A stretch of 22,071 nucleotides of DNA from a virus. Shown here piece by piece: positions 4,728-20,932 of this stretch. The translations under genes were made by a program, and so were the position numbers. The stretch covers positions 1-22,071 of IMG/VR virus record IMGVR_UViG_3300042897_000068; one strand, given 5' to 3'. Below the pieces are notes generated by a model. The model was not told the origin of the DNA. It saw nothing but the letters and a program-made list of their open reading frames with translations, and ran no database searches. Within the stretch, counting starts at the first letter, position 1, and each line of letters begins with the position of its first letter.

Positions 4728-4742
4728 ATTCTTATTTATTAA

Positions 4743-6095: not shown

Positions 6096-6866
6096 TTATA
6101 ATTGTGAGAATACCCCTAATTTCATTAAATCAAATTGTCCTGTATTAGTTACAGAAGTTACAGACATACATCTACTTGCATATAAATTTAAAGCTTGTGA
6201 CGTTGCAGGTAAGTCTGTTGAAACTGTACCCGTTGCAATTGCTCCAGTTTCATTATTAACTACTCTATATATAACACTTGTAGACATTGGTTTATTAAGT
6301 AAGGTTATACTATATACAGTTGTCATTATAGCACCCGCATCTCTATTAGCAGGAAAACCAACTCCTAAATCAATCTTAGTTGCAGTACCTGTTGCATCAT
6401 TATGGAAAACTTGTAAATTAGTATCTCCAACCTCACTACCAACACCTATTATATTAATCAACGTACTCACTAAAATATTTGATGACGTACCATAATTTAA
6501 ATCAGTAATTTGACCAGCTAAACCATAAAATTGTTGACATCCTGCAGAATATGAAGTATCTGAAACATTAAAGTCACAAACATATCTAAATCCACCATGG
6601 ATATACCATAGCAAAGCAGATCCTCTTAATGCTGTATATCTTCCGCCTGCTACAGTTGATGCATAATATCTAAGTCTAATTTGCTTTGTTGCTAAATTAG
6701 TAGATGCAACTGACTGTGCTAATGTTGAAGCAGTAGCCGAAGCTACTAATCCACCATCTGCTTGTACAGTTGTAGAGTTATTATTATAGGTAAAACCTCT
6801 GAATATTTCTGAAGGTTTCTGATACATTGTATCTAAAACGTCTTCACTCCAATATGTACCTGCCAT
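6096..6866 (-). CDS. Tail fibre/receptor-binding-type beta protein, 256 aa
   Basis: Seen: a Ser/Thr/Gly-rich beta protein with few charges and a distinctive block: IRLRYYASTVAGGRYTALRG (63-82), then SALLWYIHGGFRYVCDFNVS (83-102), followed by AGCQQFYGLAG, GVGSEVGDTNLQVFHNDATG and a late ASRCMSVTSVTNTG. I remember this 'GRYTxLRGSxLLWYIxGGFRxVCDFxVSDT' block as a C-terminal domain of tail fibres in Bacteroidota phages; here it is a stand-alone polypeptide. The cysteines C97, C110 and one near the C-terminus (SRCMS) could be structural. It is likely a virion protein at the tail tip that contacts the host surface. Located between the 114-aa protein and the pre-holin gene. Confidence 0.6.
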   Translation of the reverse strand: MAGTYWSEDVLDTMYQKPSEIFRGFTYNNNSTTVQADGGLVASATASTLAQSVASTNLATKQIRLRYYASTVAGGRYTALRGSALLWYIHGGFRYVCDFNVSDTSYSAGCQQFYGLAGQITDLNYGTSSNILVSTLINIIGVGSEVGDTNLQVFHNDATGTATKIDLGVGFPANRDAGAIMTTVYSITLLNKPMSTSVIYRVVNNETGAIATGTVSTDLPATSQALNLYASRCMSVTSVTNTGQFDLMKLGVFSQL

Positions 6867-6876
6867 CTTATTATTA

Positions 6877-7221
6877 TTACAAAATTATTTCAATATCATT
6901 TACTGTAATCCCAAATGTTCCAGCCATTTGAATTCTGAATCCTAAATAGTATAAGTAAGTAGTTGTATCAGTATATGATAAACCTGTAGGTACTTGATCT
7001 TTTACTAATTCATATAATGTATTAGTATCTTCTGCAGATACAGGATACATATTGTTAGCAATAACTTGACCGCTTTCTGATGCGTACTCAAACATATACT
7101 GAGAATCAAATCCAAATCTTAATTGTTGACTACAACCTTGTAAAATTCCTGTTACCAATCCTGTTTCTTGACCTGTAATACCGTTATTGTAAGTTACTGG
7201 TACTAATGTTTTAATTTTCAT
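6877..7221 (-). CDS. Small tail-associated protein, 114 aa
   Basis: A 114-aa protein with beta-rich composition (TLVPVTYNNGITGQETGLVT, 5-24) and aromatic-rich patches (FGFDSQYMFEYASESGQ; TTTYLYYLGFRIQMAG). No signal peptide or TM. I do not recognise it as a named family. It lies between two fibre genes with short gaps (10 nt and 34 nt), so it is most simply a fibre cap, adaptor or fibre-assembly protein. Confidence 0.5.
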   Translation of the reverse strand: MKIKTLVPVTYNNGITGQETGLVTGILQGCSQQLRFGFDSQYMFEYASESGQVIANNMYPVSAEDTNTLYELVKDQVPTGLSYTDTTTYLYYLGFRIQMAGTFGITVNDIEIIL

Positions 7222-7255
7222 ATTGTTTTTTTTATAAAGTTACTAATTATTATTA

Positions 7256-8518
7256 TTATGCGTATATTACTTCTGCTGTTGTAAGTATACAAGTCCATCT
7301 AATTGAAGTTGCTACAACTCCAGTTACTTTTATGTCTAATCCACCTGTTACAGTATTTGCTGTTAAGGCTGGAGTAGTCCAAGATGGTGTATTTTGAACT
7401 ACATTAATATTTGAGATAAGTAAAGTAGTTGTTGCAGCAGTTGTACCTCTTTGAATAAATCCATCTATATCCCAAGCACTTGTATTTGTTGAACCACTTT
7501 GTCTTGCTATAATTGTACCTTTAAATCTTATTGAATTATTATTTTGTAAAATTAAAGGTATTGCAGTTCCCCCATAATTACCTAAAGTATATGGCGTATT
7601 ATTACTTGTATCAATACCAACAGACAATGTAGAACCCTGTACAGTTCCTTGAACATTTGATACTGGTGAACCTGCCCCAGTAGTTATTTGTGAACCATAA
7701 GATAATCTGCTAACATGAGAAAACGTATCCGCATTGGTTAATATTGCCATTGACCTATTGCCTGTTGCTTTTGAAAGTTCACCAATAGCTACTGAATTAG
7801 TACCACTTGCTATTGCTACTCCATATTGCGCACCTGCCATAGCCATAGAATTAGTACCACTCGCAGTTGAAAAATTTCCTGCAAAAGCATTAACACCAGT
7901 TGCATTACCATTTTGAATTGCAAATGAATAACTATTTGTAGCCCTTGATTGCCCTTGAATAGCAACTGAATTATCACCACTTGCAACACCAACACCACCA
8001 AGATTACCACCAAGCCAAAGACTTCCAACTCCTGAAGCTATACCTCCTGTTCCTATAGACGTACCATAATTCCCTGTTACTTGATTTTGATAACCAATTG
8101 CTACTGAAGCTAATCCACTTGCTCCACCGTTATAATTAAATGGTCCGGGTTGAATATCAACGGCATAATTACCTCTTTTAATACCACCATTTGTAGGTGA
8201 ATTATCTGGAATGTGTCCTACTATAAAAGCACCTGTACCCTTTGGTAATAAAGCCATATCTGCGTTTGTAGTTGCTGAAACAGCTGTTAAACTATCTACA
8301 GGTACAGTAGCGTTAGGTGCTGTTGTGTTCTGTGCTTCGGTGAAATAAGTTAGACCACCTGCACTATATGAAACTGTCTGCCAACTTGTAGTATATTGAT
8401 AGGTTATACCAGTTGCCGTATCCGTATATCTGTCACCAGCAACCGCTGAATGTACAGGTGCGCCAGTTCCAGTTGTTTGATTTATACCTTGAAGGTATTG
8501 ATTACTATTTACTCCCAT
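7256..8518 (-). CDS. Tail fibre with YadA-like head repeats and conserved distal beta domain, 420 aa
   Basis: Domains by eye: N-terminal segment with GDRYTDTATGITYQYTTSW (28-46), common in phage fibres; neck segment GLTYFTEAQNTTAPNATVPV (55-74) through LLPKGTGAFIVGHIPDN; repeat region about 138-260 with the YadA-head pattern A-x-G-x-x-S-x-A-I-G (for example ASGTNSVAIGELSKATGNRS, 237-256); C-terminal domain 266-420 with QNNNSIRFKGTIIARQSGST, AWDIDGFIQRG, LDIKVTGVVATSIRWTC and EVIYA. The neck and C-terminal domain match the second half of the 807-aa neighbour, so the two are paralogues. Presumed homotrimeric and virion-attached. No outer-membrane anchor, so it is not a bacterial autotransporter. 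Confidence 0.75.
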   Translation of the reverse strand: MGVNSNQYLQGINQTTGTGAPVHSAVAGDRYTDTATGITYQYTTSWQTVSYSAGGLTYFTEAQNTTAPNATVPVDSLTAVSATTNADMALLPKGTGAFIVGHIPDNSPTNGGIKRGNYAVDIQPGPFNYNGGASGLASVAIGYQNQVTGNYGTSIGTGGIASGVGSLWLGGNLGGVGVASGDNSVAIQGQSRATNSYSFAIQNGNATGVNAFAGNFSTASGTNSMAMAGAQYGVAIASGTNSVAIGELSKATGNRSMAILTNADTFSHVSRLSYGSQITTGAGSPVSNVQGTVQGSTLSVGIDTSNNTPYTLGNYGGTAIPLILQNNNSIRFKGTIIARQSGSTNTSAWDIDGFIQRGTTAATTTLLISNINVVQNTPSWTTPALTANTVTGGLDIKVTGVVATSIRWTCILTTAEVIYA

Positions 8519-8533
8519 TGTTATAAAATTTTA

Positions 8534-10957
8534 TTATGCTATTACTTCTACTGAATCTAATCTTGCACTCCATCTAATATCTGTTGCTAAAAGACCAATT
8601 ACTTTAAAATCAATTCCACTTGAAGATGTAGTAATTGTTGGCGTTCCAAAACCCCCAGTATTTACAACTAATGAAATTGAGGGTGTGCCAAGTATTGCTA
8701 CAGTTCCTGACGTAGCACCTCTTACAACTGTAATATCAATATCCCAAACCCCAGAATTTACTGAAGAAACTTGTTTACCTATTATCATTCCCTTAATTCT
8801 CATTAAGTTATTATTTTGTAAATCAATACTTGAAGTATTAGTTCCATTGTAAGAATAAAGAAGTGTTGCTGTTGCATTTGTTGTTTGTGCCGCAAGTTGA
8901 AACCATGATCCTTGATTTTGAGTTGCTCCTGCACTAGCACTAAATGTACCATTAACAATTCTAGTAGAGTGTCCATAATTTTTTGCACCTAAACCAAAAC
9001 CAGCACTATAAAAACCATCTATTAAATAATTTCTTCCAGTTGCAAAACATTGAGTTCCACTTACTGTACCATATGCTCCTACCGCTAATGAATTACCACC
9101 TGACACAGTTGAACCACCAATACAGGCACTAGCATTTCCAGATACATTGCATCCACCCACAGCTAATGAGTATGAACCAGTCATATTACATGAATCACCA
9201 ACTACTAATGAAGAAGTTCCACCTGTTATAGCATTATTTGTACCACCAGTAATAACACTATAAGTAGTAGGTGAAGTTATATAGTTATCTATACCACTTA
9301 AAATTGTATTTCCAGTTCCCCCAGCAATTCTTGCAGCTGATGTTATACTTGTTTGTAGGTCTAAGCACTTTATACCTCTTTTATTTCCCCCAGTTGCAGT
9401 TCCGTCTGGTACTCTATTAATTATTGAACCATTACCTTTAGGTATTATAATAAAATCTGCACTTGCAGTTGTACTTACCGCACTTAAACTGTTTGCGTAA
9501 ACAGTAGCATTAACTCCTGTCGTTGCTTGAGCTTCTGTGAAATAAGATAAGCCTGCTGTAGTCCATTGCGTTGTTCCTGCGCCTAAGTAACCTAAAACTT
9601 GACCGCTTGTTGGTGCAACTGTTGGTAAAGTATATGCATTATTGCTAACATGTAGAACACCTTTTAAATATGTATGAGCTAAAGAGTCATTTCCAATAAC
9701 AGCTGTATCACCGCCTTTACCTATTGCTTGAGAACCAATAACAATTTCATTAGTAAGACCGTTTGCTGAAGCGGCTGATTGGTTTCCAATATATACAGAG
9801 TTACTATTACTAGATAAAGGTAAAGTAGAACTTCCATAGTATCCTCCTGCATTAAGCCCAATACCAACAGATCCACTACCTCCATTATATCTACCAGCAT
9901 TGGTTCCTACATAAACATTAAGAGTTCCAGTACCTGCACCTGCACTTATACCAAGAATAGCATTATTAGCACTACCTGATGTACCTCTACCAACTGTAAG
10001 ACCATTAACTAAAATATCACCATTAACATCTAACAGTTTAGTTGGTGAGGCAGTTCCTATACCTATGTTAGTACCATTATCAAAAATATTACTGTTACCT
10101 AATGTACCTGTTCCGGTAAATTTAGATACATAATTTGTAGTTCCAGATCCTCCTACTTTAGCGTTAAATATTGCAAAGTCAGAAGAAGATAAATAACCAT
10201 TTGTTGATCCTGATGCTTGAGTAATACTTATTGCTGGAGTTGTTCCTCCAGATGATACTATTGGTGCGGTACCAGTAACATTAGTTACAGCATTATTAGG
10301 AACTACTTGATTTAATGTTGTTAACCCAACTGAATAATGTTGAGATCCCTCTGTTCTAAATGTAGCTGTTTGAGATACACCTGTAGTATTCTCCATTGAG
10401 ATTTTTACTACTATTCTATCTGAAGCAAGTAAAGCAGTTGCAGAAAATACACCATCACTAACATACATTGTAGTAGTAGTTGACATATTAGTAACTATCT
10501 TAGGATCAGGAGTAAACAATAATGTTTCTATTCCTCCTAAATCTCTCTTATATACTGTAGGTCTAATTACCCAATTCTGTCCAGCTGCACCTGCATTAAA
10601 ATGCAAAAAGAATTGCCATAATCCTGCTGGAATTTGTATTGTTCCAGGTATACCATTTGGTGTTTGATATTCAGCAACTATTGTTGTAGCTCCACCAGCT
10701 ACTGTAAAAGGAACAGTTTGTTCTGCAACACTTGTTACAACAGAAGAAAATTCTTTATATGGTGATTGAGTTACACTTTGATTTAAATAATATGTTGTAG
10801 TACCAGATCCACCAGGAATAGTAATAGTTGTATTACCTCCTGCATCTGATGATGAAACACCAGCACCTACAAAATCAATACTTAAAGCATCTGTAGTTAT
10901 ATTTACACCTTCTTCAAGTATTGCAAGTTTTTTCTTTATATTAATTTTTGTACTCAT
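8534..10957 (-). CDS. Large multidomain tail fibre, 807 aa
   Basis: Domains by eye: basic N-terminus (1-20); a beta-sandwich-like region about 55-212 (YLNQSVTQSPYKEFSSVVTS, GLWQFFLHFNAGAAGQNW, RIVVKISMENTTG); a link region NGYLSSSDFAIFN (253-265); NIGIGTASPTKLLDVNGDI (297-315), a fibre motif frequent in Bacteroidota phages; a short repeat array 340-405; the module EIVIGSQAIGKGGDTAVIGN (404-423); a neck LSYFTEAQATTGVNATVYAN (470-489); a second array of glycine-rich YadA-like repeats (about 550-660); and a distal domain 675-807 ending IRWSARLDSVEVIA. Residues 470-807 parallel the 420-aa fibre. Likely a long side or central fibre. Gap of 11 nt to the 418-aa gene. Confidence 0.78.
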   Translation of the reverse strand: MSTKINIKKKLAILEEGVNITTDALSIDFVGAGVSSSDAGGNTTITIPGGSGTTTYYLNQSVTQSPYKEFSSVVTSVAEQTVPFTVAGGATTIVAEYQTPNGIPGTIQIPAGLWQFFLHFNAGAAGQNWVIRPTVYKRDLGGIETLLFTPDPKIVTNMSTTTTMYVSDGVFSATALLASDRIVVKISMENTTGVSQTATFRTEGSQHYSVGLTTLNQVVPNNAVTNVTGTAPIVSSGGTTPAISITQASGSTNGYLSSSDFAIFNAKVGGSGTTNYVSKFTGTGTLGNSNIFDNGTNIGIGTASPTKLLDVNGDILVNGLTVGRGTSGSANNAILGISAGAGTGTLNVYVGTNAGRYNGGSGSVGIGLNAGGYYGSSTLPLSSNSNSVYIGNQSAASANGLTNEIVIGSQAIGKGGDTAVIGNDSLAHTYLKGVLHVSNNAYTLPTVAPTSGQVLGYLGAGTTQWTTAGLSYFTEAQATTGVNATVYANSLSAVSTTASADFIIIPKGNGSIINRVPDGTATGGNKRGIKCLDLQTSITSAARIAGGTGNTILSGIDNYITSPTTYSVITGGTNNAITGGTSSLVVGDSCNMTGSYSLAVGGCNVSGNASACIGGSTVSGGNSLAVGAYGTVSGTQCFATGRNYLIDGFYSAGFGLGAKNYGHSTRIVNGTFSASAGATQNQGSWFQLAAQTTNATATLLYSYNGTNTSSIDLQNNNLMRIKGMIIGKQVSSVNSGVWDIDITVVRGATSGTVAILGTPSISLVVNTGGFGTPTITTSSSGIDFKVIGLLATDIRWSARLDSVEVIA

Positions 10958-10968
10958 TTTTTATCTTT

Positions 10969-12225
10969 TTAATAAATTTCTCTCCATTGCATTGCACAAC
11001 CTACAGTAGTAGAAGTAGTACCTAAATTTGTTACAGCAATCACATATATTTCTGAATTAGTGCTATCATAATTTTGAGCAATATAATTTTCTCTAGCATT
11101 TGAAGCATCACTATCAGCACTAACAGAACCTCTATTGCCTACTGCTGCGGATACATAACCAGAAGCAAAAACTTTACCATCAGTATATGCAGTAGCTCCA
11201 ACATTATATTCAACTCCTGAACTTGAATTTACAGCTGTCCAAGAACCTCCTGTTAAAAAAGAAACATTAGGTAGTTTTATAACCTTGTAATATAAAGGTT
11301 CTTTTACAGAATAAAAACTAAACTCCTCTAATTTACAAGTTAGTCTATTTAAATAACCTTGAAAAGTATTACTTAATCTTATTGCTAATAATGGAACTGT
11401 TGCTCCTGCAACTACTGTTCTTAAGTTTGTATTAAGTGTTGAATAATCTTGACCTGTTTCTACATAACCACCTTCACTTATTACAGAAGAACAGATTTGA
11501 TCAAATGATCCACCTGTTGTAGGACCTGTATTAAAAATCTCACATCTTACTGGAAGATTTGGAGATTGCATATAAGGTACAGTAATTGTATTTGATGTGT
11601 TAAACTCATGGGCAATTATATACTCACCATTTACTAAGAATCCACATCTTACTCTTCCTAATCCTAACCATGTAAAATCTATAAAGAAAAATTGAGTTTT
11701 TGTAATATCAAGGTTATACCCTGAGGGGCCTGTTCCATCACACTTGTCTACATTCCAAGAAGACTGTACTATTCTTGTTCCAATAGCAATTCCACTTGTA
11801 CTAGTTCTTACATTAAATGATAATGTACCCTCACCATTTTGTTCAAAATATATACCATTAAGATCATCAAAGTATCCTGTTCTTTTAGTTACATTAGTAA
11901 CAGGTGCCTTAAAACATATTGTAGAATAAATTAACTGACTTTTACCAGGCATGTATGCATGATAAAGTTTAGTTTGATGAATTGCACTACTATTAGGATC
12001 AGATGTTGTTGATAATAAAGCAGAAGATTGATTAGGAATAAAAGTTACTGCACCACCATTAGTTAATTTATCTAAGAAGTTTGTATTTAAACCATAAATA
12101 TGTTTATAATCTCCAAGTGTAAATGGTTCAGAAACCCTTTGTCTACCAAAGGCATCAGCCAACATTGGGTAACTAGTAAATATTGGTTCACTAGGTAAAC
12201 CTGCTATAGTAACTTGAGTACTCAT
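10969..12225 (-). CDS. Phage receptor-binding/fibre-type protein with DAFGRxRVS motif, 418 aa
   Basis: Seen: residues 24-40 (DAFGRQRVSEPFTLGDY) match the 'DAFGRxRVSxPxTLxD' signature I know from structural proteins of many large and marine phages. The rest is beta-rich and jelly-roll-like: HAYMPGKSQLIYSTICFKAP (residues 89-108), GIYFEQNGEGTLSFNVRTST, FFFIDFTWLGLGRVRCGFLV, GEYIIAHEFNTSNTI, LRTVVAGATVPLLAIRLSNT, and a last domain YIAQNYDSTNSEIYVIAVTN ending AMQWREIY. The 'GxGxVRxGFLVNGxYIxxHxFN' stretch looks like a concanavalin-type carbohydrate-binding sandwich. Likely a tail-tip or receptor-binding protein. It lies 3 nt after the 201-aa gene and 11 nt before the 807-aa fibre. Confidence 0.65.
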   Translation of the reverse strand: MSTQVTIAGLPSEPIFTSYPMLADAFGRQRVSEPFTLGDYKHIYGLNTNFLDKLTNGGAVTFIPNQSSALLSTTSDPNSSAIHQTKLYHAYMPGKSQLIYSTICFKAPVTNVTKRTGYFDDLNGIYFEQNGEGTLSFNVRTSTSGIAIGTRIVQSSWNVDKCDGTGPSGYNLDITKTQFFFIDFTWLGLGRVRCGFLVNGEYIIAHEFNTSNTITVPYMQSPNLPVRCEIFNTGPTTGGSFDQICSSVISEGGYVETGQDYSTLNTNLRTVVAGATVPLLAIRLSNTFQGYLNRLTCKLEEFSFYSVKEPLYYKVIKLPNVSFLTGGSWTAVNSSSGVEYNVGATAYTDGKVFASGYVSAAVGNRGSVSADSDASNARENYIAQNYDSTNSEIYVIAVTNLGTTSTTVGCAMQWREIY

Positions 12226-12228
12226 TTA

Positions 12229-12834
12229 TTACGAGTTATATATAATAATTAATTCAGTACCAGTACCATTATATGTAAATGTTCCAGTTGTGTAATAGTT
12301 ATTCAAAGATCCTGCATCAAAGTTTAATGTTTCTCCAGATTTAATTGTTGAACCTAATACAGTTCCATTACCAGTCCCTACATTAGCTACAGAAACACTA
12401 AATGTTTCAACTGCAATAGAACCTGAACCAGTTACTCTAATAAAGTTTGGAGTTCTTTGAATTGACGTTGTATTAGTAACAAGTGTAGCTAAATAACTAT
12501 TTGGATTTACATATGTTATTGGTGCTACTGGGGTACCTGGTGTATTACTACCTGCTTGAAAATAAACTGGTGGATTAAATGTACCCGTATCTGGATTATA
12601 AATTCTTACTTCTAACCATGTAACATCATTAGCATCAACAATTAAAGAAGCTTCATAATCAGCTCCAGCTTGTATAGCTGCAAGTATTTGGTTAAGTAAT
12701 GAATCTACATTACTTGTATTTGTATTGATATCAGTAAGGTTATCACATGCACATTCTTGTCCCAATAGCATTTTTAATTGCCATGGCATGTTTGTTCCTT
12801 TACCACCGTATGTTTTTAAATTTCCTACAGACAT
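12229..12834 (-). CDS. Virion/tail-associated protein with SVGNLKT N-terminus, 201 aa
   Basis: The start is placed at ATG 12834 (MSVGNLKTYGGKGTNMPWQL). A longer frame to 12906 would add a hydrophobic, Phe/Ile-rich leader that is merely translated promoter and terminator sequence. The 'SVGNLKTxGxKGxNxPxQ' opening is one I remember from structural proteins of Bacteroidota phages. Residues 27-60 contain ECAC and a short Asn/Leu helix (VDSLLNQILAAIQAG); the rest is beta-rich (EVRIYNPDTGTFNPPVYFQA, then SIAVETFSVSVANVG) and ends LIIIYNS. First gene of the large fibre/lysis unit. It could be a fibre-attachment or tail-tip protein; exact role unknown. Confidence 0.6.
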   Translation of the reverse strand: MSVGNLKTYGGKGTNMPWQLKMLLGQECACDNLTDINTNTSNVDSLLNQILAAIQAGADYEASLIVDANDVTWLEVRIYNPDTGTFNPPVYFQAGSNTPGTPVAPITYVNPNSYLATLVTNTTSIQRTPNFIRVTGSGSIAVETFSVSVANVGTGNGTVLGSTIKSGETLNFDAGSLNNYYTTGTFTYNGTGTELIIIYNS

Positions 12835-12890
12835 AATAATTGATTTATATATAATAATATACAGAAAAGTTTCTATATATACAAATATAA
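12835..12890 (-). promoter_or_regulatory. Putative promoter region for the fibre/lysis unit
   Basis: On the minus strand TATATTTG (12889-12882) follows directly on the terminator T-tract, and TGTATATT (12863-12856) comes 21 nt before the ATG at 12834. The sequence around the latter closely resembles that before the fibre gene at 20764 (about 22 of 25 positions the same by eye: TGTATATTAT, then TATATAAAT). Either element could set the start of this long transcript. Confidence 0.45.
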
Positions 12891-12916
12891 AAAAGAAAAG
12901 CCACATCTCTGTGGCT
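12891..12916 (-). terminator. Rho-independent terminator after the repeat-fibre unit
   Basis: On the minus strand a perfect 7-bp stem AGCCACA/TGTGGCT with tetraloop GAGA (12916-12899) is followed by TTTCTTTTTT. It starts 8 nt after the stop of the 48-aa gene and is followed at once by the next putative promoter. Confidence 0.85.
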
Positions 12917-13327: not shown

Positions 13328-14035
13328 TTAAGCTAGTTGTAATGGTATTTTATAATCAGTACCATTAATTTTTACTGTCCAAGATATTGTAGGTGTTAAT
13401 GCTTCAGTAGCAATTGCACCTACATTATTACTACTTGAACCAATTACTAATTGATTATTTGCAGTTGCACTTGCATTCTGACCTAATACTATAGAACTTG
13501 AGTATCCGTTAATTTGTGTTCCTGAACCAATTGCAATACTAAAATTTGCTGCACCAACATTTTCTCCAGCAAGTTGACCAATTCCAATATTATTTTGTCC
13601 TGTTCCATTAGGACCTCCTGATAAAGTGCTCCAACCAAGTCCTACATTACCAGAACCTGTAGTTATACCTGTTCCTGCAGTTATACCAACAAATGTATTA
13701 TAAACTCCTGTTGTATTATTTAATAATGTTTGATAACCTATAGCTGTATTACTTTCACCTGTTGTATTTAGACTTAATACATTATAACCAAAAGCTGAAT
13801 TATTTATTCCACCAGCAAGTGAAGCTAATACTAATTCACCATATGCAGTATTATTATTTGGTAATACTGGTGGTGTTACTCCTGCTAATAAATCCTCTAC
13901 TGATATTGCACCAGGTAAATAGCCATCACTTCTTCTTGCATCTTTTAATCCTAATGGTATAAGTGTTCTTGAGGCATCAACTGTATTTACTACATGATTA
14001 CCTTTGATCCATGATATAAAATTTAAAATATCCAT
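13328..14035 (-). CDS. Short tail fibre of the shared-anchor family, 235 aa
   Basis: Smallest of the repeat fibres. Domains: N-terminal anchor 1-52 (MDILNFISWIKG, VDASRTLIPLGLKDARRSDG, YLPGAISVEDLL), nearly the same as in the 481-aa and 397-aa fibres; a short Pro/Asn linker; about six repeats of the 17-residue pattern N-T-T-G-x-x-N-T-A-I-G-x-x-x-L-x-x (77-185); then ATANNQLVIGSSSNNVGAIA (190-209) and the cap SWTVKINGTDYKIPLQLA. The anchor presumably docks on a common tail attachment site and the cap seals the trimeric beta-roll; both are inferences from conservation. Last fibre of its unit. Confidence 0.75.
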   Translation of the reverse strand: MDILNFISWIKGNHVVNTVDASRTLIPLGLKDARRSDGYLPGAISVEDLLAGVTPPVLPNNNTAYGELVLASLAGGINNSAFGYNVLSLNTTGESNTAIGYQTLLNNTTGVYNTFVGITAGTGITTGSGNVGLGWSTLSGGPNGTGQNNIGIGQLAGENVGAANFSIAIGSGTQINGYSSSIVLGQNASATANNQLVIGSSSNNVGAIATEALTPTISWTVKINGTDYKIPLQLA

Positions 14036-14060
14036 TTTGTTTTATTTTTAAGTTATTAAA

Positions 14061-15506
14061 TTAAGCTAATAAAATTCTTTGTGCTACACCATTAATAATT
14101 ACATTCCAGTATTTAGTTTGAGTTTGTGCTGCTATAACTACTGTACCTGCATTAGTTCCAGAAGAGCCAACAACAAATTGATTAGATGCTGTTGCAGTAG
14201 CATCAGTTCCAATCATAATACTATTATTAAAGTTACCTGATGCAGTACCAAGACCAATACCAATGTTATTACTTCCTGTAGTATTTGAATACAATGCTTG
14301 TAAACCTATTGCTATATTATAAACACCAGTAGTATTGCTATATGATGCACTTGAGCCTAGTCCAGTATTACCATATCCATTAGTATTTGCAGCAAGAGTA
14401 TTAGTACCTACTGCAGTGTTACTATAACCCTCTATATTACCATATAATGCAGAACTACCAATACCTATATTTGATGATCCAGATTGATTAGAATAAAGAG
14501 CATTTGTACCTATACTAGTGTTTGTATTTCCACTAGTAGTTGATCGTCCTGCCATATAACCAATTGATACATTTGAAATACCTGTATTAATTTGATAACC
14601 TGCATAATATCCAATTGCAATATTATTGTAACCAACTGTATTTGCATTTAATGAATAATTACCTATTCCAATATTATGGTTACCAGTTGTATTTGAATAA
14701 AGTGAAGAATCACCAATTGAAAGATTATTATAACCATTTGTAGTCATATATAAACAATCTATACCAATTCCAATATTTCTATACCCAGTTGTATTACTTC
14801 TTAACATATAATTTCCAACTGCAACATTTCTATAACCAGAACTGTTAGTATATAATGCTTCTAAACCTATTGCAAAATTACTATTTCCCCCATTACTATA
14901 TAAAGCACCATGACCTATTGCTGTATTATTAAAATTATTATTACAATTATATAATGAATCATTACCCAAAGCAAGATTATTATATCCAGTAACATTAGTA
15001 AATAATGATTGATTTCCTACTGCTAAATTGTTATAACCAGTAGTATTACTTTTTAGTGTACTTTCACCATATGATGTATTACTTGATATATTACCTTTAC
15101 CATTATTCCAAATGGTAAGATCTGTTGCATTTGATTCTAACCATGCAGGAACTCCAGCTACTATATTACCACTACCTAATACTGATGTACCATTAATAGT
15201 TTTGATATTAGTACCACTATATAGTATATTTTGTTTATTAGATATTTGAGAATACACATCAGAAAATTGAGATTGTACACCAGAAAATTGACTTTGCAAA
15301 TCTTCTTGAGCATAGATATTACCACTTATACTACCCCAACTTGATGATGCTGAAGAAAGTAAATCTCCTACTGATATTGCTCCTGGCAAATACCCATCTT
15401 TTCTTCTATTATCTTTTAACCCTACAGGGATAAGAGTTTGAGAAGCATCTACTGTTGTTACTTGTCTCTTACTCTTAAGCCAAGAGATAAAATTTAAAAC
15501 ATCCAT
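14061..15506 (-). CDS. Tail fibre of shared-anchor family with about sixteen 17-residue repeats, 481 aa
   Basis: Domains: anchor 1-51 (MDVLNFISWLKSKRQVTTVD, ASQTLIPVGLKDNRRKDGYL, PGAISVGDLL); coiled-coil-like neck 66-92 (EDLQSQFSGVQSQFSDVYSQ); collar segment GTNIKTINGTSVLGSGNI (98-115), familiar from phage fibres; neck module LTIWNNGKGNI (130-140) shared with the 514-aa fibre; repeats 154-424 (for example NTTGYNNLAVGNQSLFT); tail module ATASNQFVVGSSGTNAGTVV and cap YWNVIINGVAQRILLA. Very poor in charge, rich in Asn, Gly and Ser, as expected for an elongated trimeric beta-roll. Start supported by identity with paralogue starts. 24 nt from the 514-aa gene. Confidence 0.8.
   Translation of the reverse strand: MDVLNFISWLKSKRQVTTVDASQTLIPVGLKDNRRKDGYLPGAISVGDLLSSASSSWGSISGNIYAQEDLQSQFSGVQSQFSDVYSQISNKQNILYSGTNIKTINGTSVLGSGNIVAGVPAWLESNATDLTIWNNGKGNISSNTSYGESTLKSNTTGYNNLAVGNQSLFTNVTGYNNLALGNDSLYNCNNNFNNTAIGHGALYSNGGNSNFAIGLEALYTNSSGYRNVAVGNYMLRSNTTGYRNIGIGIDCLYMTTNGYNNLSIGDSSLYSNTTGNHNIGIGNYSLNANTVGYNNIAIGYYAGYQINTGISNVSIGYMAGRSTTSGNTNTSIGTNALYSNQSGSSNIGIGSSALYGNIEGYSNTAVGTNTLAANTNGYGNTGLGSSASYSNTTGVYNIAIGLQALYSNTTGSNNIGIGLGTASGNFNNSIMIGTDATATASNQFVVGSSGTNAGTVVIAAQTQTKYWNVIINGVAQRILLA
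14235..15047 (-). repeat. Coding array of 17-residue (51-nt) fibre repeats, about 16 copies
   Basis: Consecutive units such as NTTGYNNLAVGNQSLFT, NVTGYNNLALGNDSLYN, NTTGNHNIGIGNYSLNA and NTTGSNNIGIGLGTASG; one unit is 16 residues. Conserved are the NxxG turn, the N at position 7 and the (A/I/V)-x-G at 9-11. DNA copies are diverged but keep similar AT-rich codons, which could allow slippage or recombination. Confidence 0.85.
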
Positions 15507-15530
15507 TTTTATTTATTTTTAAGTTAGTTA

Positions 15531-17075
15531 TTATGCTAATAAGATTTTTCTTGCTACACCATTGATTACAACATTCCATACATTAGAAGAAGTGTTAATT
15601 TCTGATGCTACTGAACCTGCATTTGTTCCTGCGGATCCTACTGAAAATTGATTAGCTGCTGTAGCAGCTGCTCCAAAACCTAATATTACCGAACCACTAA
15701 AATTACCTGAAAGTGTAGCAACACCAATCATAGTATTATTATTACCAGATACATTTGTTGTTCCAGCTGTATTTCCTATAGCAATGTTATTACTTCCTGT
15801 AATATTATTTGTTAATGATCCACTACCTATTGCTGTATTTGCTTGTCCTATTGTGTTATTATTTAATGCTCCTGAACCTATAGCTGTATTGTCAATTCCT
15901 GTAGTTGTTGAATACATAGCAGACTTTCCAACAGCAGTATTATCATTCCCTATTGTATTTAAGAACAATGCCTGTACACCAACACTAGTATTATTATTAC
16001 CAGTAGTATTAGTTAATAATGAACTATTACCAACAGCAGTATTATAACTTCCAGTAGTTGTATTTAATCCTGAACTAAAACCAATTGTAGTATTTCCTGT
16101 TCCAGATGTTGTAAAAAGTGAAGCACTATAACCAATTGCAGTATTTCCTTGAGCTAATGCATTTTGTAAAGTTCCAGAACCAATTGCTATATTTCCACTA
16201 TAGATTGTATTAGTATTTAAAGACTTATAACCTATTGCAACATTGTCTGTACCTGTTGTATTATTTTGTAATGCTTGTAGTCCAAATGCTGAATTATTAA
16301 TACCAGTAGTTGTATTTCTCATAGTATCGTTACCAACAGCTGTATTGCCACCATTTGCTGCATTAAAACTTGATAAAGCATAAGAACCAATTGCTAATAA
16401 ATCATTACTTAAAGTATTTGCTTGCAATGCATTAGTACCTATTGCTATATTTCTTGATCTAATTTGAGAAGATGAACTTGCTCCCCAACCAATTGCAACA
16501 TTAGTTTGACCTGATGTATTTGCATATAACGCATCTGAACCAATAGCAATATTACCCGCTCCAGTAGTATTTTGTTGCATTGCTGCATATCCATATACAG
16601 TATTATTCCAACCAGTAGTATTATTTCTAAATGCCTGCATACCGTATGCAGTATTAGTGTCAATATTACCTTTACCATTATTCCAAATAGTAAGTTCACT
16701 TCCATTGTACTCTAACCAATAAGGTAATGTACTACCAGCATAGTTAGGAATATTTAAAGTTGATCCAATTAACGTAGCTGCACCAGATGAACCTGATGTA
16801 GTTAAAGTAATATTATTCTGTTTAGCATTTAATAAAGATATTAAATCACCTTGAGTATTAATGTTACCAACAATAGATCCCCAAGTAGGGGTAGTTGGAG
16901 GTAATAATCCTGCAATACTACTAACTAAATCAGTTGTAGTTATTAATGCTGGTTGATAATTACCATAAAAGTTTGCATCTCTTACACCAATAGTAAACAA
17001 GTCTGTTGCTTCTAATAGTGTTCTAACCTTTCTATTATCAATAAGGTTAGTATAATTTGTTATATTGTTTAACAT
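15531..17075 (-). CDS. Tail fibre with divergent anchor and about eighteen 17-residue repeats, 514 aa
   Basis: Domains: N-terminus 1-53 (MLNNITNYTNLIDNRKVRTL, LFTIGVRDANFYGNYQPALI, TTTDLV), a divergent version of the family anchor that keeps the '(I/V)G(V/L)+D ... Y-x-P-(A/G)-(L/A)-I-(T/S)-x-x-D-L' spacing; segment WGSIVGNINTQGDLISLLNA (65-84); module LTIWNNGKGNI (129-139), as in the 481-aa fibre; repeats about 152-457 (NTTGNNNTSVGVQALFL, NTIGNDNTAVGKSAMYS); then ATAANQFSVGSAGTNAGSVA and cap VWNVVINGVARKILLA. The cap is almost the same as that of the 481-aa fibre although the anchor differs. Separated by 31 nt from the 719-aa gene. Confidence 0.8.
   Translation of the reverse strand: MLNNITNYTNLIDNRKVRTLLEATDLFTIGVRDANFYGNYQPALITTTDLVSSIAGLLPPTTPTWGSIVGNINTQGDLISLLNAKQNNITLTTSGSSGAATLIGSTLNIPNYAGSTLPYWLEYNGSELTIWNNGKGNIDTNTAYGMQAFRNNTTGWNNTVYGYAAMQQNTTGAGNIAIGSDALYANTSGQTNVAIGWGASSSSQIRSRNIAIGTNALQANTLSNDLLAIGSYALSSFNAANGGNTAVGNDTMRNTTTGINNSAFGLQALQNNTTGTDNVAIGYKSLNTNTIYSGNIAIGSGTLQNALAQGNTAIGYSASLFTTSGTGNTTIGFSSGLNTTTGSYNTAVGNSSLLTNTTGNNNTSVGVQALFLNTIGNDNTAVGKSAMYSTTTGIDNTAIGSGALNNNTIGQANTAIGSGSLTNNITGSNNIAIGNTAGTTNVSGNNNTMIGVATLSGNFSGSVILGFGAAATAANQFSVGSAGTNAGSVASEINTSSNVWNVVINGVARKILLA
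15705..16622 (-). repeat. Coding array of 17-residue fibre repeats in the 514-aa fibre
   Basis: Units such as NTTGAGNIAIGSDALYA, NTIGNDNTAVGKSAMYS, NTIGQANTAIGSGSLTN and NITGSNNIAIGNTAGTT, all 17 residues, interrupted by a few longer insertions (SSSSQIRSRNIAIG; SSFNAANGGNTAVG). The period is set by the protein; it is not a CRISPR array. Confidence 0.85.
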
Positions 17076-17106
17076 ATCTTTTTAATTTAATTATTTATAT
17101 AAACTT

Positions 17107-19266
17107 TTAATCTGCAAGAAGCATCTTGTATGTAACACCATTTATTACAATTGGAAAATGTTTTGTTGATGATAATGCTGCTGCTGTAACTGCAGTTGCA
17201 TTACTAACTGTTAAATCACCTTGTAAGTATGTTCTTACTATATTAGTATTACCTAATTGAACTGTATTAGAACCTTTACCTTCAGCATCATAACCAATTA
17301 CTATTTGATTTGTTTGATTATTAGCTGATGATTTTGAATTTCTACCTATAAATACTGAAGCTGTTGTAAGTGTTAAATCTGTTAAACCTACAATATAACG
17401 ACCAGCATTATGTCCTAAAAATGTATTATCATCACCTACAGTACTAAATCTACCTGCACTAATACCTAATGCTACGTTATAGGAACCTGATATATTATCA
17501 CCAAATGCTGACTCACCTATTGCAACATTGTAACTTCCAGTAGTATTGTCAGATGCTGCAATAAAACCTATAAAAGTATTATTTATACCAGAAAAATTTG
17601 AATCTCCAGCATAACTACCTAAGAATGTATTACCACCACCATTATGATTATCTCTACCTGATTGAAATCCTAAAAATGTATTATTAGAACCTGTAGTATT
17701 ATCAAGATTACTATTGATTCCACCAATTGTATTATTAAGATTATCTGCAACAAAAATATTACCAATATTTACAGTATTTGAACCTTTACCAATTGTACTA
17801 AAACCAATTGCAATTTCATTTATTTGATTATCTGCAAAAGATTTTATATTTGTACCTAAGAAAACTGAATTATTAGCAATAGTCATTGGTGTAGTACCGT
17901 CTGCTAAAAATGCACCTGAGTTTATACCAAGAAATGTATTATTATCACCTATTGTATTACTGAAACCAGCATTATTTCCAATAAATGTATTGGCATTTCC
18001 AATTGAAGTATAATAACCTGCTGAGTAACCAAAAAATGCATTACTGTTACCAGAAATATTTGAATATCCTGAATCATTTCCATAAAATGAATTACCTGCG
18101 CCAATAGTGTTTGAGGTTCCAGATGCATATCCTGTAAATGTATTATACAATGCAGTTAAAGTATTATATCCAGAATAGCCACCAATAAACGTATTAAAAC
18201 TTGCAGTAGTATTTTTAGATCCAGCACTTTGTCCTAAGAATGTATTTTGAAAACCAATAGTATTACTTTTTCCTGATTGAAAGCCTACAAAAGTATTACT
18301 AGCACCAGTAGTATTAACATTACCAGTTAGAGCTCCAACAAATGTATTTGCCGTTCCTGTTGTATTTAAACGTCCTGATGAAACACCATTAAAGGTATTA
18401 TAATCTGCTATATTAAAATATCCAGCATTAGAACCAGTAAAGGTATTAAAACTACCAATTGAATTTGTAAATCCTGCTACTCTACCTATAAATGTATTAT
18501 CATTTGCTGTAGTATTATTATAACCTGATCTATCACCAAAAAATGAATTACTATTACCAGATGAATTTAACTTTCCTGATGTATAACCAAAGAAGGCATT
18601 AGACTCACCAATTGTATTTACAGATCCAGAATCATATCCAAAGAATGAATTAAATGTTCCTATAGTATTTAAATCTCCAGCATTATTTCCTACAACAGTA
18701 TTAGATATTTGATTACCATTACCTCTACCTACTCTAACTTCAAAGAAATATGAATCAGCAATAAGAGTATGTATAGCTTCATCTCTTGATATTGGTAATG
18801 TTTTATTACCTCCAGCATCAATTGATGTACCTAAAAAATTCCATTCTGTATTATTAGCAATAGATATTGTTTGATAACTTGTTCCATTCCATATCCATGT
18901 TGATGTATCTACTGTTGATACATATAATACATTTGTTAATGCTGGAGTATTTGGAGTAAAAATTACACCTGGTGTTGTTGGAGTCAATTGATTAAAGTTT
19001 ATAACTTCATCAACTATAGGTACTGGTATTACAGATAATACCCCTAAGTTATTAATAGTTAATCCAGGACCTACTATAATTGTTCCAGGTGTAGTTGTTG
19101 TTGCAAGGGGAACAATGCTTCCAAATGCAGATATTGGTACTACAACTGATAAGAATTTATCATCTCTTGATAAATCTGGTACACCAACAACGGTTACCGC
19201 ATTTGCAGGTACAGTCGCTCTGTAATCCTTTCTTTTAATCCAGCTTATAAAATTTAAAACATCCAT
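17107..19266 (-). CDS. Longest 17-mer-repeat tail fibre, internally duplicated, 719 aa
   Basis: Start placed at ATG 19266 (MDVLNFISWIKRKD), which matches paralogue starts; the frame extends upstream to 19290 but that ATG lies inside the hairpin at 19282-19314. Domains: anchor 1-50 with a diverged second half; beta-like domain 60-180 (TSTWIWNGTSYQTISIANNT, TLPISRDEAIHTLI); first repeat array about 186-455 of the form N-T-F-x-G-x-x-(A/S)-G-x-x-N-T-x-G; module SVFLGTNIKSFADN and FSTIGKGSNTVNIGN (about 467-503); second, shorter array 518-625; second copy of the module SVFIGRNSKSSANNQTN and YDAEGKGSNTVQLGN (637-673); then TYLQGDLTVSNA and cap KHFPIVINGVTYKMLLAD. First gene of its unit. Confidence 0.8.
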   Translation of the reverse strand: MDVLNFISWIKRKDYRATVPANAVTVVGVPDLSRDDKFLSVVVPISAFGSIVPLATTTTPGTIIVGPGLTINNLGVLSVIPVPIVDEVINFNQLTPTTPGVIFTPNTPALTNVLYVSTVDTSTWIWNGTSYQTISIANNTEWNFLGTSIDAGGNKTLPISRDEAIHTLIADSYFFEVRVGRGNGNQISNTVVGNNAGDLNTIGTFNSFFGYDSGSVNTIGESNAFFGYTSGKLNSSGNSNSFFGDRSGYNNTTANDNTFIGRVAGFTNSIGSFNTFTGSNAGYFNIADYNTFNGVSSGRLNTTGTANTFVGALTGNVNTTGASNTFVGFQSGKSNTIGFQNTFLGQSAGSKNTTASFNTFIGGYSGYNTLTALYNTFTGYASGTSNTIGAGNSFYGNDSGYSNISGNSNAFFGYSAGYYTSIGNANTFIGNNAGFSNTIGDNNTFLGINSGAFLADGTTPMTIANNSVFLGTNIKSFADNQINEIAIGFSTIGKGSNTVNIGNIFVADNLNNTIGGINSNLDNTTGSNNTFLGFQSGRDNHNGGGNTFLGSYAGDSNFSGINNTFIGFIAASDNTTGSYNVAIGESAFGDNISGSYNVALGISAGRFSTVGDDNTFLGHNAGRYIVGLTDLTLTTASVFIGRNSKSSANNQTNQIVIGYDAEGKGSNTVQLGNTNIVRTYLQGDLTVSNATAVTAAALSSTKHFPIVINGVTYKMLLAD
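17392..18711 (-). repeat. Two coding arrays of NTFxG-type 17-residue repeats separated by a GKGSNTV module
   Basis: Units such as NTTGASNTFVGFQSGKS, NTIGFQNTFLGQSAGSK and NTTGTANTFVGALTGNV. The arrays cover residues about 186-455 and 518-625 of the 719-aa fibre. These repeats prefer Phe at position 9 and Gly at position 15, unlike the A-I-G/A-L-Y type in the two following fibres. Confidence 0.8.
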
Positions 19267-19281
19267 AATGCATATATATTT

Positions 19282-19314
19282 AAATACCACAGACTTATTT
19301 TATCTGTGGTATTT
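19282..19314 (-). terminator. Perfect 12-bp hairpin between fibre units, possible terminator
   Basis: Arms AAATACCACAGA and TCTGTGGTATTT pair perfectly around a 9-nt loop. It lies 10 nt after the stop of the 76-aa gene and 16 nt before the 719-aa fibre start. The T-run after it on the minus strand is short (ATTTAAATATATA), so it may be a weak terminator, an RNA-processing or stability hairpin, or a bidirectional structure. Confidence 0.55.
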
Positions 19315-19323
19315 TAATTAAAT

Positions 19324-19554
19324 TTATTTATAAAGTTCTTTTACTCTTGCAACTACATCTGCATCAGTCCATTCACCAATTGCATCATATGCATCTCCAG
19401 TCCATAGTACTAAAATACCTAGTTCTTTAGTATATGCTTTTACTTCTTTTCTAGAGTTGTTATCTACAATCTCATCAATTGTTAATTCTTCAATAGTTCT
19501 TTTTAATTCTTGAACTACTACTATTTCTTTTGCTGTGTCAAATGTGATTTTCAT
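19324..19554 (-). CDS. Small fibre-linked phage protein, 76 aa
   Basis: Seen: MKITFDTAKEIVVVQELKRT then IEELTIDEIVDNNSRKEVKA, VLWTGDAYDAIGEWTDADVV and ARVKELYK. Two strands then helices, acidic. The 'ITIxEIVDNxxxKxV ... LWxGDAYDAIGxWTDxDVxARxxELY' pattern is one I remember beside fibre genes in Bacteroidota phages, with no known activity. It directly follows the 397-aa fibre (16-nt gap) and precedes a hairpin, so a dedicated fibre chaperone, adaptor or small virion protein is a fair guess. Confidence 0.6.
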   Translation of the reverse strand: MKITFDTAKEIVVVQELKRTIEELTIDEIVDNNSRKEVKAYTKELGILVLWTGDAYDAIGEWTDADVVARVKELYK

Positions 19555-19570
19555 AATATGTTTTTATTTA

Positions 19571-20764
19571 TTAAAGTCTTACTGCCTCTATGGCAAAAGT
19601 TGTTTGATTATAGTATAAGTATGTATTTCCAGATATAGCTCCATTTGGAACATTGATAGCTGTAGTTGCTGCTGTTCTATCTACATAAGAGGGTAAAGTT
19701 GCATTAGCAAATACTGTTTGTCCTGATAGTGTTCCAGCTTTATGTGCTTGATAGCCAAAAGCATTAACATTATTACCTGTAGAATTCATTCCTGCTTCTT
19801 GACCAAAGAAATTAGAACGGCTAACTGAACTTTGGTAACCAGCATGATTACCAATAAAATTTGAATCAGTAGCATTAGTAGATTGAAACCCTGCCTCTAA
19901 ACCAATAAAATTACATCTAACCGCATTGGTTGCTTGATAACCAGCAGCTGCTCCTATAAAATTAGATGTATTAGCATTAGTTGCTTCATATCCTGCATTG
20001 GGTCCTAAGAAATTACCTTGATATGCATTGGTTGCATTTTGCCCAGCAGATTGCCCAAAGAAATTAGAATAGTTTGCAGATGTTGCACCATACCCTGAAT
20101 CTTTACCTAAAAAATTAGAATCATTTGCATTAGTGGCTCCTCTACCAGCATTGTATCCTAAAAAATTTGATTCAGTTGCATTAGTTGCATTTAATCCTGC
20201 ATACCTTCCTAAAAAATTAGAATCATTTGCACTAGTTACATTTGCACCAGCATCTAGCCCGATAAAATTTGAATACTGTATATTAGTGGTTCTAGCACCT
20301 GCTTCAAATCCTATAAAGTTACAATGAATTGCACCACCTGCAGTTTCTCCTGCGCTTTTACCAATAAAGTTACAAGCATTTGAACCATAAGCACTTCTTC
20401 CTGCTTGTTGACCAATGAAATTAGAAACAACTGCATTATTAGAACCTTCTCCTGCAAGTTCTCCTAACGAAACACAAGATATTGAACTATAAGTACCGGC
20501 TTGTTGACCAAATGCAATATTATATCTATTATCAAGTAGAGCAGCTGGTGGAGTCAAGGTATAGATTGAATTACCATTAACAGCAAATAATGAAGGTGGA
20601 GCAGGTGTTGATGCTAACAAATCAGCTACAGATATTACTCCTGTTAAGTAACCATCATCTCTGCGGTCATCTTTTTGTGCTACTGGTATAAGAGATTTAG
20701 TTGGATCTACTGAGGTTACTTGACGTTTACCTTTTACCCAAGAAATAATATTTAAAATATCCAT
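19571..20764 (-). CDS. Tail fibre of shared-anchor family with SNFxG-type 17-mers, 397 aa
   Basis: Start placed at ATG 20764 (MDILNIISWVKGKRQVTSVD), matching paralogues; an upstream in-frame ATG at 20806 would translate promoter-like sequence. Domains: anchor 1-51 (PTKSLIPVAQKDDRRDDGYL, TGVISVADLL); linker SIYTLTPPAALLDNRYN; repeats 82-340 of the type ATNAxxSNFxGxxAGxx (NATNATESNFLGYNAGR, GATNANDSNFLGKDSGY); C-terminal domain TLPSYVDRTAATTAINVPNG, then TYLYYNQTTFAIEAVRL, which differs from the INGV cap of its paralogues. The repeats are the most regular in the window. The alternative end suggests a different tip or receptor. Confidence 0.8.
   Translation of the reverse strand: MDILNIISWVKGKRQVTSVDPTKSLIPVAQKDDRRDDGYLTGVISVADLLASTPAPPSLFAVNGNSIYTLTPPAALLDNRYNIAFGQQAGTYSSISCVSLGELAGEGSNNAVVSNFIGQQAGRSAYGSNACNFIGKSAGETAGGAIHCNFIGFEAGARTTNIQYSNFIGLDAGANVTSANDSNFLGRYAGLNATNATESNFLGYNAGRGATNANDSNFLGKDSGYGATSANYSNFFGQSAGQNATNAYQGNFLGPNAGYEATNANTSNFIGAAAGYQATNAVRCNFIGLEAGFQSTNATDSNFIGNHAGYQSSVSRSNFFGQEAGMNSTGNNVNAFGYQAHKAGTLSGQTVFANATLPSYVDRTAATTAINVPNGAISGNTYLYYNQTTFAIEAVRL
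19745..20521 (-). repeat. Coding array of SNFxGxxAG 17-residue repeats
   Basis: About fifteen units in residues 82-340 of the 397-aa fibre, for example GATSANYSNFFGQSAGQ, NATNAYQGNFLGPNAGY and EATNANTSNFIGAAAGY. The NFxG core recurs every 17 residues, with occasional 15-19-residue units near the start. Confidence 0.85.
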
Positions 20765-20810: not shown

Positions 20811-20850
20811 AATATAAAAACAAAATCCCAGACTATTAATCCGGGATTTT
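20811..20850 (-). terminator. Second terminator, end of the mini-unit
   Basis: On the minus strand AAAATCCC (20850-20843) pairs with GGGATTTT (20829-20822), with one mismatch and a further G-C pair inside, followed by GTTTTTATATT. The stop codon of the 14-codon ORF lies in the loop. Confidence 0.7.
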
Positions 20851-20898: not shown

Positions 20899-20932
20899 AT
20901 AAAAAATCCCAATAAGAATTAACTTATTGGGA
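20899..20932 (-). terminator. Strong rho-independent terminator after the lipoprotein gene
   Basis: On the minus strand a perfect 10-bp stem (TCCCAATAAG with CTTATTGGGA, 6-nt loop) is followed by TTTTTTATTT. It ends the co-chaperonin/DUF3310/lipoprotein unit, 60 nt after the lipoprotein stop. The 60 nt between (20933-20991) hold no gene I can support. Confidence 0.9.

What the first reader, a model, noticed from the sequence alone, without database searches (positions are those of the whole stretch)
13328..20764. Five fibre genes built as interchangeable parts: common anchor, variable 17-mer array, common cap
The 235-, 481-, 719- and 397-aa fibres begin with nearly the same block (MD(I/V)LN(F/I)ISW then, in three, a TLIPVGLKD-type segment and DGYLPGAISVxDLL); the 514-aa fibre has a diverged version. 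Four of the five end in a cap of the form W-x-V-x-INGV-x-(R/Y)-K-x-L-LA. Between these ends the repeat number varies from about 6 to 25 and the repeat type differs (A-I-G/A-L-Y, N-T-F-x-G, SNFxG). This suggests one attachment site served by several alternative or combined fibres, and a locus that expands by duplication and exchange. Seen directly: the shared ends. Inferred: that they dock to one site and that this broadens or switches host range.
Basis: partly seen in the sequence, partly recalled or inferred. Interest (0 to 1): 0.62.

Follow-up and report, generated by a model that had tools for sequence, protein, structure and literature searches.

The report
Mix-and-match tail fibres in crAss-like phages
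A crAss-like phage carries a row of five fibre genes built from a start block, a replaceable repetitive middle and (in four of them) a matching end block, and close relatives from other samples have swapped the middles at exactly those block boundaries; this is a clear natural case of how a phage may change what it sticks to, although fibre swapping as such is already known.

Summary
Confirmed: five minus-strand genes (235, 481, 514, 719, 397 aa) carry related ~50-aa N-terminal blocks, 17-residue repeat arrays and, in four of five, a ~35-aa C-terminal block. Relatives with a complete tail region show these are Crassvirales (Pfam Crass_capsid, ring 1, ring 2, muzzle). About 130 related loci show the genes really are modular. 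Anchors stay at backbone identity while bodies are replaced. 74% of 113 distinct breakpoints fall at residues 40-62 (9% expected if uniform). Two 99%-identical genomes (L010/L011) differ almost only by two replaced bodies. Two anchor types and two body types occur in all four combinations, and the same body (97.6% DNA identity) sits on different anchors. One strain pair shows gain or loss of a whole fibre gene, with a cap remnant where it is absent. Corrected: the anchors are not one interchangeable set. They form three classes in fixed gene order, two of them usually single-copy, so several dedicated slots fit better than one shared docking site. F397 lacks the cap. Bodies are predicted YadA-like beta-rolls. 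No reverse transcriptase, invertase or integrase was found in five relatives, which suggests homologous recombination. Docking site and host-range effect remain inferred.

The parts
13328..14035 (-). F235 fibre: class I anchor (res 1-~52), YadA-like 17-mer array, cap (res ~200-235)
   Evidence: AF2 model
13883..14035 (-). F235 class I anchor
   Evidence: HMM 1.6e-26; A2
14061..15506 (-). F481 fibre: class I anchor, array, cap
15354..15506 (-). F481 class I anchor
   Evidence: HMM 2.1e-27
15531..17075 (-). F514 fibre: class III anchor, array, cap
   Evidence: AF2 model
16917..17075 (-). F514 class III anchor
   Evidence: HMM 1e-5; clade support 98
17107..19266 (-). F719 fibre: class II anchor, longest array, cap; in many relatives this slot holds a ~180-aa protein without an array
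19117..19266 (-). F719 class II anchor
   Evidence: HMM 5.7e-18
19571..20764 (-). F397 fibre: class I anchor, SNFxG-type 17-mer array, no cap
20612..20764 (-). F397 class I anchor
   Evidence: HMM 1.1e-25
13328..13432 (-). cap of F235
   Evidence: hairpin E218-223/E226-231
14061..14165 (-). cap of F481
15531..15635 (-). cap of F514
   Evidence: hairpin E499-504/E507-512
17107..17211 (-). cap of F719 (most diverged)
20822..20850 (-). terminator-like hairpin just upstream of F397 (with a second at 20907-20932)

Best explanation
The five genes encode trimeric, YadA-like fibres of a crAss-like phage, inferred to be tail fibres. Each is built from an N-terminal anchor that joins it to the virion at a class-specific slot, a 17-residue-repeat beta-roll body that presents the binding surface, and usually a C-terminal beta-hairpin cap that ends the roll and probably nucleates trimerisation. 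Anchor and cap DNA flank each body, so homologous recombination between co-infecting relatives, or between neighbouring slots, replaces the body while both ends stay. Whole fibre genes are also gained or lost. The phage can therefore vary its adhesin surface without disturbing assembly. Shown: modular anatomy, body replacement at anchor and cap borders, cross-anchor transfer, gene gain/loss. Inferred: virion docking, trimer state, receptor binding, host-range effect, and the recombination enzyme (a Sak4-like AAA_24 annealing protein is present in one relative).
For: Anchor and cap homology. Four-combination square of anchors F481-type/F235-type with two bodies, each combination seen in two or more contigs (duplicate contigs). 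L010/L011, 99% identical, differ by two replaced bodies bounded by anchor or array on the left and cap on the right. 113 distinct broken gene pairs: 74% of 5' breakpoints at residues 40-62 against 9% expected; where capped pairs regain identity the mode is 25-55 aa from the end; 14 of 36 strain-level gene pairs have changed bodies. Body plus cap 97.6% identical over 653 bp on anchors 79% identical. Loss or gain of a class III gene, leaving 93 nt of cap. Fold: beta-roll resembling trimeric autotransporter heads. Other bodies on these anchors: collagen and weak CBM5/12. Crassvirales hallmarks in a relative. crAss001 precedent: the N-terminus of a trimeric fibre docks in a tail hub (PMC10172136).
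Against: No experiment on these phages; no host known. Anchor N-terminal ~20 residues and caps are low-confidence in the models (pLDDT 35-60). Only monomers were predicted. The anchor has no significant sequence match to crAss001 gp22 (hhalign probability 1.5%). Foldseek hits to solved structures have E above 0.01. About half of the capped broken pairs (26 of 57) show no regained identity at the cap at the threshold used.
Confidence: 0.8

Rival explanations
1. One docking site, alternative fibres: all five fibres compete for the same hub and each virion carries a mixture or one type, broadening host range.
For: Shared anchor ancestry of all classes; the three class I anchors in the window are 57-62% identical; class I copy number varies between loci.
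Against: Classes II and III are usually single-copy and in fixed order next to each other; anchors group by slot across genomes. Anchors with distinct hydrophobic N-termini (MDxLNFISW versus MLNNITNY) are kept apart over long divergence.
Confidence: 0.25
2. Hetero-assembly: class II and III proteins are fixed branching or adaptor parts of one compound appendage, and class I fibres attach to them or to the hub. In crAss001, gp22 binds the hub and contacts additional fibre proteins.
For: Fixed order and mostly single-copy II and III; many class II proteins keep one short array-less body (body cluster 0, ~180 aa) across many genomes and several anchor types; crAss001 precedent (PMC10172136).
Against: Some near-complete genomes lack a detected class II (G004) or class III (G003), and bodies of both classes are also swapped.
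Confidence: 0.45
3. The mosaics are metagenome assembly chimeras made at shared anchor or cap sequence.
For: All relatives are metagenome contigs, and shared blocks are exactly where assemblers may cross over.
Against: The same configurations recur as near-identical contigs from different samples (window/L009 99.98%, L012/L013, L037/L046, L023/L025/L026, L108/L153/L129), and all four anchor-body combinations are seen in at least two contigs.
Confidence: 0.05
4. Programmed variation (invertible shufflon or diversity-generating retroelement) rather than homologous recombination.
For: Tail-fibre switching by these means is known in other phages; DGR diversification has been reported for p-crAssphage (review PMC10136315).
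Against: 0 of 359 anchored ORFs lie on the minus strand relative to the array; no RT, serine recombinase or tyrosine recombinase in five relatives, with positive controls ringing; the changes are whole-body replacements, not point changes.
Confidence: 0.04
5. The bodies diverge fast under selection and anchors slowly; no exchange is needed.
For: Bodies are presumably surface-exposed and should evolve quickly.
Against: 98.5%-identical backbones with unrelated bodies, and near-identical bodies on different anchors, cannot arise by gradual divergence.
Confidence: 0.02

Closest known systems
Crassvirales tail fibre/spike region (PhicrAss001 gp22-gp26; BACON-repeat proteins of p-crAssphage)
   Same: Same virus order (Crass_capsid, ring 1, ring 2 and muzzle in a close relative); a region of lineage-variable fibre genes; N-terminal docking of a trimeric fibre; repeat-built appendages that change by duplication and transfer (PMC10172136, PMC10136315, PMC6949934)
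   Different: Anchor, array and cap have no significant match in crAss001; several paralogous anchor classes share a locus, and bodies are bracketed by conserved ends; YadA-like rolls instead of BACON or polygalacturonase domains
YadA-like head beta-roll of trimeric autotransporter adhesins (YadA, BoaA, BpaC, CbpF)
   Same: Predicted beta-roll array; the best PDB matches of F235 are such heads (BoaA 3s6l, TM 0.70 on the target)
   Different: 17-residue rather than the typical 14-residue repeats (the latter from general knowledge); no membrane anchor; presumably fixed to a virion by the N-terminus; E-values weak
Metaviromic islands / flexible host-recognition modules of aquatic phages (PMC3909814; PMC7468147)
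   Same: Near-identical phage cores with interchangeable host-recognition genes
   Different: Here the exchange unit is resolved to a body between an anchor and a cap, in parallel slots of one locus
Modular tailspikes/fibres with conserved N-terminal anchors and several RBPs per virion (e.g. CBA120; modular E. coli tailspikes PMC10408124)
   Same: Conserved virion-binding N-terminus, exchangeable receptor-binding part, several paralogues
   Different: Conserved C-terminal cap as well, repeat-array bodies, Crassvirales

Membership tests
Crassvirales | crAss-type major capsid, ring and muzzle proteins | tested here: met
   In relative G001 (backbone 92-93% nt identical to the window where shared): PF23898 3.5e-32, PF24228 8.4e-11, PF25702 1.7e-25, PF25731 1.1e-30; the window itself holds only a TerL fragment of the same phrog
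YadA-like head repeat (PF05658) | sequence match to the Pfam repeat | tested here: not met
   0 hits for the five fibres; a neighbour (7256-8518) does match at 3.9e-14
YadA-like head repeat (PF05658) | beta-roll fold | tested here: inconclusive
   AF2 roll pLDDT ~88; top PDB hits mostly TAA heads, but E 0.01-0.1
YadA-like head repeat (PF05658) | homotrimer | not testable with these tools
   only monomer prediction available
crAss001 gp22-type hub-docked fibre | N-terminal residues homologous to gp22 1-26 | tested here: not met
   HMM E 0.065 for the best domain, outside residues 1-26; hhalign probability 1.5%
crAss001 gp22-type hub-docked fibre | docking hub proteins THA/THB present | not tested
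   no THA/THB model was identified; no hit among the proteins scanned
Modular phage receptor-binding proteins | conserved N-terminal anchor with exchangeable distal part | tested here: met
Modular phage receptor-binding proteins | binds a host receptor | not testable with these tools
   no host known; collagen and weak CBM5/12 bodies on the same anchors are only suggestive
Shufflon / invertible fibre locus | inverted gene copies plus invertase | tested here: not met
Diversity-generating retroelement | reverse transcriptase | tested here: not met
   five relatives; the window's own genome is incomplete

The most novel reading that the evidence does not exclude
A multi-slot plug-in fibre system: distinct anchor classes mark fixed docking positions on a crAss-like tail, and a shared pool of capped bodies moves by homologous recombination between slots, strains and even unrelated fibre genes, letting the phage combine several adhesins combinatorially on one virion.
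Probability: 0.4. Interest if true: 0.65.

Novelty: new variant of a known kind. Interest (0 to 1): 0.5.

Why it matters
It gives a resolved natural example of how crAss-like phages may change their adhesins: which segment is exchanged, where the borders lie, and that this happens between strains that are otherwise 98-99% identical. It predicts slot-specific docking partners that virion structures or proteomics could test, and it supplies anchor and cap models (alignment A2, cap HMM) that would let fibre genes be recognised in crAss-like genomes where they are now hypothetical.

Tried and rejected
Anchor search in annotated phages: no match. Relatives in cellular genomes by anchor and by TerL: none, so no host link. 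PF17236 MCP search: no match, and no control rang either, so uninformative. Homology of the anchor to crAss001 gp22: not significant. PDB sequence search with the fibre and anchor profiles: no relative (one chance-level hit, Cap5O, E 0.011). DGR, shufflon and integrase: not found. Promoter scan: no more sites than shuffles. Tree of 50-residue anchors: few columns, many forks unresolved; only the F514 and F481 clades are well supported among those that hold window genes. My rule-based I/II/III classification is a regular-expression sorting checked by eye against the tree; borderline rows (L050, L042, L066, L073) may be misfiled.
Full report
What is there. Five open reading frames on the minus strand (13328-20764) encode proteins of 235, 481, 514, 719 and 397 aa, called F235, F481, F514, F719 and F397 here. 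Three share a ~52-residue N-terminal block at 57-62% identity to F481. F719 is a clear relative and F514 a distant one (Smith-Waterman z 13-17 for F719 against the three, 9-10 for F514 against F235 and F481). All five arrays have 17 as the strongest repeat period. Four of the five end in a homologous ~35-residue block; F397 does not.

Which phage. The window is a 22-kb virus record. A relative (G001, 121 kb; backbone 92-93% identical to the window where shared) carries the crAss-type major capsid (PF23898), ring 1 (PF24228), ring 2 (PF25702) and muzzle (PF25731) proteins, plus matching terminase and portal families. This is a crAss-like phage, distant from the named ones: terminase identity to annotated phages is about 23-26%. 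No host was found; Bacteroidota is inferred from the order.

The anchor family. A scan of viral contigs with the anchor found 449 relatives, of which 76 loci were kept. Two more scans added loci. An iterated HMM gives 227 anchored ORFs in the first 76 loci plus the window and 359 in all 127 loci with an anchor, none on the opposite strand (loci overlap, so some ORFs are counted more than once). Three anchor classes appear: I (MDxLNFISW...TLIPVGLKD...GAISV), II (...PxDxSLxAVGxPxxxRDDxYL...) and III (NxTNxxNLI...DLxxxGxRD...Y.PAL). In the window F397, F481 and F235 are class I, F719 class II and F514 class III. The usual order is I..., II, III, I..., and classes II and III are mostly single-copy. 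In the anchor tree the F514 and F481 types form supported groups across genomes (98 and 95 SH-aLRT). Large contigs carry 0 to 4 anchored genes; the window and L010/L011 have 5.

Bodies are exchanged. (i) L010 and L011 are 98.2-99.2% identical over the shared stretches, yet two stretches are unrelated: the distal array of the class III gene and the body of the last gene. In both, identity returns at the cap. In the last gene the first 48 codons are 99% identical and the rest of the body is different, of F481 type in L011. (ii) Among 113 distinct broken gene pairs, 74% of 5' breakpoints lie at residues 40-62 (9% expected under a uniform model). In 31 of 57 capped pairs identity returns, most often 25-55 residues from the end. 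Of 36 distinct strain-level gene pairs (backbone 95-99.5% identical), 14 have changed bodies. The scan required an anchor match of at least 100 bp, so earlier breakpoints could not be counted. (iii) Anchor types F481 and F235 each occur with body clusters 2 and 3, so all four combinations exist. In all, 18 of 63 anchor clusters carry more than one body and 13 of 77 body clusters more than one anchor. (iv) A body plus cap is 97.6% identical over 653 bp between L112:8700 and L124:2910, while their anchors are 79% identical. The window's F235 body is 92.6% identical to L015's, with anchors at 78%. (v) L125 and L022 (98% identical) differ by presence of the class III gene; where it is absent, 93 nt of its cap remain, which reads as a deletion scar.

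Could this be artefact? The same configurations recur as near-identical contigs from other samples (window/L009 at 99.98% over 11.6 kb; others), and each of the four anchor-body combinations is seen in at least two contigs. Chimeric assembly is unlikely to explain them, though L010 and L011 are each single contigs.

Fold and function. AlphaFold2 on F235 with 19 relatives gives a beta-roll (pLDDT ~88), a strand-strand-helix anchor and a C-terminal hairpin, the last two at low confidence. F514 gives the same order of elements: helix, strands 26-32 and 40-46, helix 47-55, array, hairpin 499-504/507-512. The closest solved structures are mostly trimeric autotransporter heads, with weak E-values. 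The array is widespread in viral proteins (PHROGs 6002, 4636 'tail spike' and 23837; annotated tail fibres). Bodies on the same anchors in relatives include collagen repeats and weak carbohydrate-binding modules. The cap and array also occur on proteins with other N-termini (MSFTGQINFGYP..., MAVVTVIGK..., MSTEINIKK...), the last being the type of the window's own 8534-10957 gene. The cap is therefore better read as an end or trimerisation module than as part of a docking system.

Mechanism. In PhicrAss001 twelve tail hubs each hold the N-terminus of a trimeric fibre, which contacts further fibre proteins (PMC10172136). By analogy the anchors here dock to the tail, but neither homology to gp22 nor hub genes were shown. 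Conserved anchor and cap DNA on both sides of each body gives ready homology for recombination. A Sak4-like AAA_24 protein (PF13479, 2.9e-27; the Sak4 reading is from general knowledge) in G001 is a candidate enzyme. No reverse transcriptase, serine recombinase or tyrosine recombinase was found in five relatives, and no inverted copies.

Comparison and novelty. Exchangeable receptor-binding parts behind a conserved N-terminus, multi-fibre virions, and flexible host-recognition modules on near-identical cores are all known. High diversity of the crAss fibre region is also reported. What is added here is the detailed anatomy: three anchor classes in fixed slots, a conserved cap, and breakpoints that map to both borders. 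I rate it a new variant of a known kind, interest 0.5.

Noticed in passing
window 6096-12906: A second fibre/structural block on the same strand: 807-aa and 420-aa proteins (the latter with Pfam YadA_head, 3.9e-14), a 418-aa virion structural protein (PHROG 1645, 47% identical to cyanophage S-RIM32), a 225-aa protein. Relatives of the 807-aa gene can carry the same cap (L141:9719).
   Followed up: partly
L010:3208-3744, L028:2764-3297, L048:5107-5652: Many class II slots hold a ~180-aa array-less protein; its body is conserved across quite different anchors (body cluster 0). In the window this slot holds the 719-aa array fibre instead.
   Followed up: partly
window 19325-19551 (minus): Small ORF (~75 aa, MKITFDTAKEIVVVQELKRTIEELTIDEIVDN...) between F397 and F719, followed by a hairpin (19278-19318) upstream of F719; function unknown.
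   Followed up: no
L022:9231-9349: 93-nt cap remnant left between two fibre genes where L125 has a whole class III gene; it reads as a deletion scar.
   Followed up: yes
window 4260-5234: Lysis-like pair: M15 peptidase (PF13539) and YiiX/C92 amidase (PF05708).
   Followed up: no
L087:15392-17224: In relative G001 a 611-aa tail-region protein with a strong Fib_succ_major domain (6e-106) next to an Lcl_C match, another possible adhesin outside the anchored array.
   Followed up: no
L035:2131, L063:7256, L137:7362: A further anchor type (MSFTGQINFGYPITSQNIITNIPDNAVLPLS...) upstream of class I genes, carrying the same cap (and arrays where read), in proteins up to 1031 aa.
   Followed up: partly
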